Made by a program: the position numbers and the translations under genes
Shown: positions 8,569 through 34,208 of the stretch, piece after piece
How positions within the stretch are numbered: the first letter of the stretch is position 1
Layout of the letters: every line of letters starts with the position of its first letter
The notes under the pieces: generated by a model
The model's database searches: none
What the model was told of the DNA's origin: nothing
Seen by the model: only the letters and a program-made list of their open reading frames with translations
Assembly (NCBI GenBank): GCA_016873635.1
Contig: VGWJ01000002.1
Coordinates: 1-64,000, forward strand
Length of the DNA stretch: 64,000 bases
Direction: 5' to 3'
Source: Lentisphaerota bacterium
GTDB taxonomy: Bacteria; Verrucomicrobiota; Kiritimatiellia; UBA8416; VGWJ01

Positions 8569-8601
8569 GGCCCCGCCCCGGCGGTCCGCCGCGGCGGGGC
8601 C
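8569..8601 (+). terminator. GC-rich hairpin after the PgaB-like gene
   Basis: Arms GGCCCCGCC and GGCGGGGCC enclose an inner GGCGG/CCGCC stem directly after the TGA. No U-tract follows, so this may be a stabilising hairpin or a factor-assisted terminator. Confidence 0.45.
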
Positions 8602-8703
8602 GGCGTACCCGCCATGGCCCGCGGGACGACGGCGGGAGGCCCCGCCCCGCCGGGGTTGCCCGCCGCATGACCGTCCCCTGCTCCGCCGCCGATCGCCGCG
8701 TAG

Positions 8704-8838
8704 GGGGTCAGTTACGCGGTGGACGGGTGGCCCGCGACCTCCGGGCGCGGGCGGACATGTACGTGCGCCCGGACTGCGTTTGCCCGCGCCCGGAGGTCGC
8801 GGGCCACCCTGCGGCTGCAGCGCGAAACTGACCGGTTA
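8704..8838. repeat. Palindromic dispersed element, copy 1
   Basis: The element of about 135 bp is bounded by GGTCAGTTACGCG and CGCGAAACTGACC. Inside, bases starting GGGTGGCCCGCGACC and their exact reverse complement form a perfect 28-bp stem around a loop of about 29 bases that contains ACATGTACGT. The same element recurs in the opposite orientation at 13586-13730, and a half copy lies near 15529. Short terminal inverted repeats and no coding capacity resemble a REP element or MITE. It fills most of the gap between the PgaB-like gene and leuC. Confidence 0.85.
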
Positions 8839-8858
8839 CATCGCCGCTGAACTTCCGC

Positions 8859-13571: not shown

Positions 13572-13585
13572 GACGATGTGCGCGG

Positions 13586-13730
13586 GTAACGGGTCAGTTT
13601 CGCGCTGCAGCCGCAGGGTGGCCCGCGACCTTCCGGGCGCGGGCAAACGCAGTCCAGGCGCACGTACATGTCCGCCCGCGCCCTCATAGAAGGTCGCGGG
13701 CCACCCGTCCACCGCGTAACTGACCCCTTA
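13586..13730. repeat. Palindromic dispersed element, copy 2 (inverted)
   Basis: This is the reverse complement of the element at 8704-8838, with the same termini and loop. One stem arm carries a small insertion (TTCTATGA in place of TCC), so the central stem is slightly imperfect. It occupies most of the 301-bp space between the LeuA-like gene and the glycosyltransferase gene, next to both promoters. Confidence 0.85.
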
Positions 13731-13769
13731 CGTGCGCGGGGTGTCGCGGTGCGCGGGAAAGCTTTGGCC

Positions 13770-15528: not shown

Positions 15529-15566
15529 GGTCAGCCATACGATGGACGGGCGGCCCGCGACCTTGC
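15529..15566. repeat. Degenerate half copy of the palindromic element
   Basis: The stretch GGTCAG..TACGATGGACGGGCGGCCCGCGACCTT matches one end of the elements at 8704 and 13586 at roughly four bases in five. The other arm is missing. It lies between the UbiA-like gene and the DUF2723 gene. Confidence 0.6.
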
Positions 15567-22022: not shown

Positions 22023-23369
<1,347 letters not shown>

Positions 23370-33051: not shown

Positions 33052-34208
33052 CGTTTGTAGCCCCGCGTTTCGCGGAGGGCGACACCGTCGGCGGCGCCGA
33101 AATCCTGCTGCGCCGCCAGGCCGAGCGCCTGGCCGCGGGCGGACGTCCGGTTGACTTCCTCGCCACCTGCGCGCGCAGCCACGTGACCTGGGCGAACGAG
33201 CTGCCCGCCGGAAGGCGGCGCGCCGGCAACCTTGACGTCGAGCTCTTTCCCGTGGACCGGGACCGCGACGCGGACGCGTTCCGGCGTGCGCTGCGCGCCA
33301 TCGGCCGCGGCCGCTGGAGGGCGGAGCACGAGCAGACCTGGCTGCGCCACGGGCCGCGCAGCGAGGCCCTCTGCCGGCGCCTCGCGGAGCGCGCCTCCGA
33401 ATACGAGCGCGTCGTGGTCGGCCCCTGCCCCTTCGCCCTGACGGTGCGCGCGGCGGACGTTGTCCCCGATCGCACCGTTCTCGTGCCCTGCCTGCATGAC
33501 GAGCCGTTCGCCCGCCTGGCCGCCGTGCGCGGCATGTTCGCGCGCGTGCGCGCCGTCATGTTCAACACGCCGGCGGAGCGGGACCTCGCCGCGCGCCTTT
33601 ACGGCGGCGGCGCGCCGCGCCGCTTCGTGGTGGGCATCGGCATGGCGCCGTTTCCGGTCGACCCGGACGCGTTCCGGGCGCGGCACGGCCTGGCCGCGCC
33701 CTACCTCATTTACAGCGGCCGGCGCGAGCCGGGCAAAGGCACGCCGCTGCTGCTGACGTACCTTGCCGTCTTCCGGGCGCGCACGGGACGCGACATAGGG
33801 CTGGTCCTCACCGGCGCCGGCCCGGTCGACGCGCCTCCGGACCTGGCGCGTCACGTGCTGGACGCCGGCGTTCTGGGCGAGGCGGACAAGCACGCCGCCA
33901 TGGCCGGCGCGCTGGCGTTCTGTCATCCCTCGCGCCGGGAAAGCCTCGGCATCGTGCTGCTGGAAGCATGGCTGGCGGGCACGCCGGCCCTGGTCAACGG
34001 ACGCGGCGCCGTGTTGCGCGAGCAGTGCCGGCGCAGCCGCGGCGGGCTGTGGTTCCGCGGCTACGCCGAATTCGAGGAGGCGCTGCTGACGCTGGCGGAC
34101 AACCCCGCGCTGCGCGCGGCGCTGGCGGAAGCCGGACGCCGCTTCGTTCTGCGCGAGTGCGCCTGGGAGAGGGTGGAAGCGGCGTTGCTGTCCGCCCTGG
34201 CGGCGTAG
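33030..34208 (+). CDS. Family 4 glycosyltransferase
   Basis: A 392-residue GT-B enzyme. The N-terminal domain has a glycine-rich acceptor loop, DTVGGAEILLRRQAERLA. The C-terminal domain has LIYSGRREPGKGTPLLL, LTGAGP and the nucleotide-sugar-binding E-x7-E region in SRRESLGIVLLEAWLAGTP, which is diagnostic for GT4. Its start overlaps the small helical gene. The sugar and acceptor are unknown; a surface-glycan role is likely from the neighbours. Confidence 0.88.
   Translation: MPARGRIAFVAPRFAEGDTVGGAEILLRRQAERLAAGGRPVDFLATCARSHVTWANELPAGRRRAGNLDVELFPVDRDRDADAFRRALRAIGRGRWRAEHEQTWLRHGPRSEALCRRLAERASEYERVVVGPCPFALTVRAADVVPDRTVLVPCLHDEPFARLAAVRGMFARVRAVMFNTPAERDLAARLYGGGAPRRFVVGIGMAPFPVDPDAFRARHGLAAPYLIYSGRREPGKGTPLLLTYLAVFRARTGRDIGLVLTGAGPVDAPPDLARHVLDAGVLGEADKHAAMAGALAFCHPSRRESLGIVLLEAWLAGTPALVNGRGAVLREQCRRSRGGLWFRGYAEFEEALLTLADNPALRAALAEAGRRFVLRECAWERVEAALLSALAA

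What the first reader, a model, noticed from the sequence alone, without database searches (positions are those of the whole stretch)
8704..8838. Palindromic mobile-looking element with a perfect 28-bp stem
Two copies in opposite orientation (8704-8838 and 13586-13730) share about 130 bp with inverted termini GGTCAGTT..CGCG and a loop containing ACATGTACGT. A half copy lies at 15529-15566. All three flank metabolic or glycosyltransferase genes within 7 kb. The structure fits a REP/MITE-type element that needs a helper transposase not seen here.
Basis: seen in the sequence. Interest (0 to 1): 0.6.

Follow-up and report, generated by a model that had tools for sequence, protein, structure and literature searches.

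The report
Jumping DNA with a nested hairpin
The palindrome is a small jumping DNA element of about 140 bases whose ends resemble those of a known transposon family (IS66) and whose inside is a second, separately repeated hairpin, so one genomic parasite appears to be carried inside another.

Summary
The element spans 8700-8839 (and 13586-13731 on the other strand), each copy between exact 8-bp target-site duplications. Of 15 end-paired copies found in fetched parts of the genome, 10 have a perfect 8-bp duplication, 4 match 7 of 8, 1 has none. The ends, GTA(A/G)TGGGTCAGTTACG, nearly match those of an IS66-family transposon elsewhere in the genome (contig C106). So this is an IS66-type MITE, and the helper missing from the window has a good candidate.

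The inside is a second repeat. Its stem arms also occur alone, without the IS66-type ends, with conserved arms and different loops (REPIN-like). A sister subfamily carries GTAG-tagged REP doublets behind the same left end. In a second genome (G080) the same left end encloses an unrelated REP doublet whose arms also flank a resident REP-associated tyrosine transposase (RAYT). Best reading: a chimera, DDE-transposon ends outside and a REP doublet inside, with cores exchanged between lineages. The RAYT link is shown only in G080; no RAYT-like gene examined in the window's genome is flanked by these arms. No transposition was observed.

The parts
8692..8699 (.). target-site duplication ATCGCCGC, left
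8700..8839 (+). MITE copy 1 (type A), 140 bp
   Evidence: end pairing and 8/8 duplication
8700..8718 (+). left terminal inverted repeat GTAGGGGGTCAGTTACGCG
   Evidence: 22 exact pattern matches genome-wide
8726..8808 (+). inner REPIN-like hairpin: arms GGTGGCCCGCGACCTCCGGGCGCGGGC, loop with ACATGTACGT
   Evidence: 28-bp perfect stem; arms occur outside MITEs
8821..8839 (-). right terminal inverted repeat GTAACCGGTCAGTTTCGCG (read on the - strand)
8840..8847 (.). target-site duplication ATCGCCGC, right
13578..13585 (.). target-site duplication GTGCGCGG, left of copy 2
13586..13731 (-). MITE copy 2 (type A), 146 bp, inner hairpin 13617-13705
13732..13739 (.). target-site duplication GTGCGCGG, right of copy 2
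15529..15566 (+). decayed left half of a type A MITE
   Evidence: 77% over 44 nt; end core 12 of 17
8582..8656 (.). separate GC-rich palindromic repeat related to the core of the type B MITEs, just left of copy 1
   Evidence: (I5)
33677..33704 (-). single GTAG-tagged palindrome resembling the type B REP arm, no MITE ends examined

Best explanation
A non-autonomous IS66-type transposon (a MITE, probably of the ISBst12-like group) of about 60-181 bp carries a REP doublet as its core. Outer layer: an IS66 TnpC acting in trans, most likely the one on contig C106, recognises the GTAATGGGTCAGTnACG-like ends, moves the element and leaves an 8-bp duplication. Inner layer: the core is a REPIN-like pair of inverted palindromes from a separate repeat family, which in one relative (G080) is tied to a RAYT. 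Different cores sit behind a shared 23-bp left end. Shown: end pairing, 8-bp duplications, a resident IS66 with nearly the same ends, core arms occurring without the ends, a RAYT flanked by the core arms in G080. Inferred: that C106 TnpC is the real helper, that the elements can still move, how cores were captured, and that the type A core was ever mobile by itself.
For: 8-bp duplications in 14 of 15 pairs at 7/8 or better, 10 exact; exact repeats only of length 8; mispaired control 2 of 210. C106 IS66 ends GTAGTGCGTCAGTGACGGG and GTAATGGGTCAGTGACGGG, TnpC over the IS66 cut-off, relatives with similar ends, two with exact 8-bp duplications. Six solo type A doublets: 3' arms identical, loops 54% alike against 45% for shuffled loops, no trace of MITE ends beside them. 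Type B cores are GTAG-tagged palindromes. G080: 16 long alignments to its MITE, 9 of 12 filtered pairs with 7/8 or better duplications, core arms flanking a RAYT.
Against: No RAYT-like gene in the window's genome has type A or B arms nearby, so for the window's own element the RAYT link is analogy. The type A tag is GTGG, not GTAG. G080 holds no matching IS66. C106 shows no duplication at its edges in this assembly and shares only the terminal ~17 bp with the MITEs. Copy C24:36201 has no duplication. No transposition or empty site was seen.
Confidence: 0.75

Rival explanations
1. An ordinary IS66-type MITE whose hairpin is simply its own interior; the stand-alone hairpins are old copies that lost their ends.
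For: Decayed copies with remnants of the ends do exist (window 15529, C109:2612, C34:10334, C106:3887). In G080 nearly all REPs seen are inside MITEs. MITE and solo loops are slightly alike.
Against: Six solo doublets have identical 3' arms but near-random loops and no trace of ends; neutral decay would not spare the arms. In G080 the arms flank a RAYT without MITE ends. Unrelated cores share one left end.
Confidence: 0.2
2. A pure REP/REPIN element moved as a whole by a RAYT (the other half of the reader's REP/MITE proposal).
For: RAYT-like genes are present in the genome; hairpin doublets with variable loops look like REPINs.
Against: 8-bp target duplications and IS66-type terminal repeats; duplications are not expected from IS200/IS605-type enzymes (recalled).
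Confidence: 0.03
3. A cis-regulatory hairpin of the leucine genes.
For: Copy 1 is just upstream of the aconitase-family (leuC-like) gene, and copy 2 lies in the gap upstream of the HMGL-like gene. An effect on expression after insertion is possible.
Against: Other copies lie on many contigs with target duplications; the end sequence is absent from 142 of 144 genomes.
Confidence: 0.02

Closest known systems
IS66 family, ISBst12 group (e.g. ISDge4 of Deinococcus geothermalis; PMC12898284, passages read)
   Same: Ends starting GTAA with TCAG at positions 9-12, 8-bp duplication, 449-aa TnpC in the helper candidate
   Different: The window element has no gene and is about 140 bp; the C106 element also has a DUF6788 ORF
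Bacterial MITEs mobilised by a resident IS (e.g. MITEPye1 with IS1182 elements; PMC11578231, passages read)
   Same: Short, gene-less, terminal inverted repeats, target duplications, hairpin fold, related IS in the genome
   Different: IS66-type ends; the core is a repeat that also occurs alone, and cores differ behind one end
REPINs (REP doublets forming hairpins; PMC3116915, passages read)
   Same: Inverted doublet, conserved arms, variable spacer, single arms; GTAG tag in type B; RAYT flanked by the arms in G080
   Different: Enclosed in IS66-type ends with 8-bp duplications; type A tag is GTGG; no RAYT linked to the arms in the window's genome
TIRs made of degenerate GTAG units joined to other stem-loops in Pseudomonas (PMC3733652, passages read)
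   Same: REP units joined to a further inverted structure
   Different: There the structures flank RAYT-type genes; here the outer ends are those of a DDE transposon

Membership tests
IS66-type MITE | Terminal inverted repeats beginning GTAA | tested here: met
   GTAA or GTAG in most copies; a few read GAAA, GCAA or GTGA
IS66-type MITE | 8-bp target-site duplication | tested here: met
   10 exact and 4 at 7/8 of 15 pairs; exact length always 8
IS66-type MITE | No transposase gene of its own | tested here: met
   140 and 146 bp; paired copies are 111-181 bp
IS66-type MITE | Related autonomous IS66 with matching ends in the genome | tested here: met
   C106: 16 of 19 bases of GTAGTGGGTCAGTTACGCG at each end; similarity stops soon after
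IS66-type MITE | Movement by the IS66 transposase | not testable with these tools
   needs an experiment
REPIN (inner hairpin) | Two inverted REPs with conserved arms and less conserved spacer | tested here: met
   solo doublets: 3' arms 100%, 5' arms 83%, loops 54%
REPIN (inner hairpin) | GTAG tag before each palindrome, type B core | tested here: met
   GTAG plus palindrome 24 times in 361 kb, most of them in MITEs
REPIN (inner hairpin) | GTAG tag, type A core (the window's own) | tested here: not met
   the arm begins GGTGG
REPIN (inner hairpin) | RAYT gene flanked by the same REP, window's genome | tested here: not met
   no arms near the four complete RAYT-like genes; the fifth, on C129, is cut by the contig end
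REPIN (inner hairpin) | RAYT gene flanked by the same REP, genome G080 | tested here: met
   the gene scores 75.5 bits against the NF047646 cut-off of 80

The most novel reading that the evidence does not exclude
REPINs can switch vehicles: instead of relying on their RAYT, REP doublets are repeatedly captured as cores behind IS66-type ends and then spread by a DDE transposase, giving a two-level parasite that depends on two unrelated transposases. In G080 this may be the only way the REP has spread.
Probability: 0.45. Interest if true: 0.65.

Novelty: new variant of a known kind. Interest (0 to 1): 0.5.

Why it matters
MITEs and REPINs are two widespread kinds of gene-less mobile DNA in bacteria and are treated as separate, with unrelated enzymes. 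Finding one inside the other, with different REP-type cores behind one conserved 23-bp end in more than one genome, suggests that REPs can escape dependence on RAYTs and offers a natural system for asking how MITE interiors arise. It also warns that REP copy numbers need not reflect RAYT activity.

Tried and rejected
Rejected: a regulatory origin, because of the target duplications and the absence of the end from 142 of 144 genomes. Rejected: a RAYT as mover of the whole element (8-bp duplications). Rejected: the second IS66 (C129) as helper, because its ends, GTAAGCGTCCGG, differ.

Led nowhere: Rfam found only a tRNA in the window. A plasmid search with 2 kb around copy 1 found only places of 60-80% identity, those with a named gene being aconitase/isopropylmalate dehydratase genes. 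The first fold covered only 143 of the 180 nt of a type B element and is not used; the short C3 element there lacked its last 2 nt. The loose end-finder listed 165 pairs in the own genome, mostly chance; filters them, which drops C3:56947 and C50:10025 (8/8 and 7/8 duplications) and keeps two chance pairs (C41:13266, C91:1758). Empty sites could not be tested: no relative nearer than the same order was offered. Whether the 60-bp copy at C3:71881-71940, which lacks the inner hairpin, is an empty ancestor or a deletion is open. How many free REPs G080 holds was only sampled.

Full report
Observation. The 28-bp perfect stem belongs to copy 1; copy 2's stem is interrupted. Folding as single-stranded DNA is far beyond shuffles. 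The copy at 15529 is a decayed left half.

Family. The window is G000:C2:1-64000 of a 3.24-Mb assembly in 145 contigs. A search with copy 1 gave 82 matches, many of them the two arms of one copy. The end pattern GTARNGGGTCAGTTNCGCG has 74 matches with up to 3 mismatches against 18 for the reversed control, 22 of them exact. Fifteen paired copies were found in fetched stretches by end sequence alone; 10 have 8/8 and 4 have 7/8 matching flanks, C24:36201 has none. Exact repeats were always 8 bp long. A further 60-bp copy, C3:71881-71940, lacks the inner hairpin and also shows an 8-bp repeat, CGGCAGCG (read).

Helper. IS66 transposases (PF03050) are found at two places. The one on C106 has ends GTAGTGCGTCAGTGACGGG and GTAATGGGTCAGTGACGGG (positions 19 and 1904), a 449-aa TnpC above the IS66 model cut-off, DDE-type motifs (their identity as catalytic is recalled) and a DUF6788 ORF. 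Its edges show no 8-bp repeat, and the contig begins 18 bases before it. The C129 IS66 has other ends. A relative of the C106 TnpC was found in 15 of 345 genomes of the class, the own genome included. Of these loci, L124 and L130 (the same element as L138 and L139) end in GTAATGGGTCA(G/C)TGAC, L125, L127 and L128 in related forms, and L125 and L135 show exact 8-bp duplications. ISDge4, a published ISBst12-group member, has ends GTAACTGCTCAGCA and GTGACTACTCAGCA, a 449-aa enzyme and an 8-bp repeat (PMC12898284, passages); two IS66 elements of Paracoccus have 8-bp repeats (PMC3281130, passages).

Inner hairpin, type A (the window's). The arm GTCGCGGGCCACC occurs 35 times exactly (reversed control 1); 9 of the 35 lie in five type A MITE copies (two in C2, and C10, C17, C54). 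Six solo doublets have identical 3' arms and loops close to random, whereas the MITE copies also share the loop. Their flanks show no trace of MITE ends (9-11 of 17 bases; control median 9, 95% point 11), whereas four decayed MITEs show 11-15. Conserved arms with a less conserved spacer is how REPINs were described (PMC3116915, passages).

Type B. Other copies share the left end but have another core: two inverted palindromes, each preceded by GTAG (GTAG-GGCGCGGCG-TCC-CGCCGCGCC and GTAG-GGCGGACCG-TCC-CGGTCCGCC). GTAG plus palindrome occurs 24 times in the 361 kb held, mostly in MITEs, against 4-13 for nine other orders of the same four letters; GGTA (21) and TAGG (14) probably overlap the same motif. 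GTAG is the tag of a main REP superfamily (PMC3733652, passages). Two 33-bp modules occur in all four presence/absence states, in opposite orientation; 20 of 33 bases are alike, which 4 of 5000 shuffles reach. Related modules lie inside a type A hairpin (C8:4149) and beside copy 1.

Other genomes. The end GTARNGGGTCAGTTACGCGG was found in only 5 stretches of the genome collection: four in one MAG (JANYBP01) and one in a MAG named Kiritimatiellaeota (JAPLSZ01). The window therefore probably comes from Kiritimatiellota (inference). G080 gives 16 long alignments to its MITE; of 12 filtered pairs 7 have 8/8 and 2 have 7/8 duplications (one of the 7/8 is an A-run). The left end is identical over 23 bases in types A/B, G080 and JAPLSZ01 (GTA(A/G)TGGGTCAGTTACGCGGTGG; base 5 varies in some type A copies), but the cores are unrelated. 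On G080 contig C130 a 276-codon ORF scores as a REP-associated tyrosine transposase (NCBIfam 75.5 bits, cut-off 80; Pfam Y1_Tnp 20-21, cut-off 23; PDB 4er8 TnpArep, E 0.001) and is flanked by inverted copies of the MITE's core REPs, the left flank matching one arm and the right flank the other. These copies have no MITE ends. In 366.9 kb of other G080 sequence no REP was found (0; shuffled control 1). The JAPLSZ01 copy has another hairpin core and no visible duplication.

Against. In the window's genome five RAYT-like places were found, but no type A or B arms lie near the four complete ones, and three of these have inverted ends of their own. So for the window's element the RAYT link is analogy, and its tag is GTGG. 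G080 holds no IS66 of the C106 type. No movement was seen.

Literature (held open-access library only). No paper holds both 'Kiritimatiell' and 'miniature inverted'. Three hold REPIN, MITE and RAYT together; passages read in two of them describe no MITE with a REP core, although PMC3733652 reports TIRs made of degenerate GTAG units joined to other stem-loops. Searches for IS66 with MITE gave no IS66-type MITE in the passages read. This is not a complete search of print.

Verdict. An IS66-type MITE, which is a known kind, of unusual build: a REP-type doublet as its core, with different cores behind one shared end.

Noticed in passing
L122 (G000:C49, RAYT-like gene at 22396-22785): The gene is flanked by a long direct repeat containing tandem CAGTTACCGCGGTGCGC units, which resemble the MITE end CAGTTACGCGGTG with one extra base.
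   Followed up: no
L119, L120, L121 (G000:C4:14222, C1:63475, C2:87233): Three RAYT-like genes have 23-25-bp inverted ends of their own, and two of them match the C-terminal part of DnaA models.
   Followed up: partly
L060 (G000:C11:61326-61402): A tandem run of the type A arm with a 21-bp period (GGTGGCCCGCGACCGACCCAT) leads into a full type A hairpin.
   Followed up: no
L045 (G000:C8:4130-4188) and L046 (G000:C34:10220-10346): Type A arms enclosing a type B-like 33-bp module: a palindrome nested in another palindrome.
   Followed up: partly
L094 (G000:C129): A complete three-gene IS66 with a DUF6788 ORF lies directly beside a truncated RAYT gene at the contig end.
   Followed up: partly
L005 (G000:C10:23323-23410): A type A MITE copy breaks off in its loop and runs into what looks by eye like the end of an AraC-type regulator gene.
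   Followed up: no
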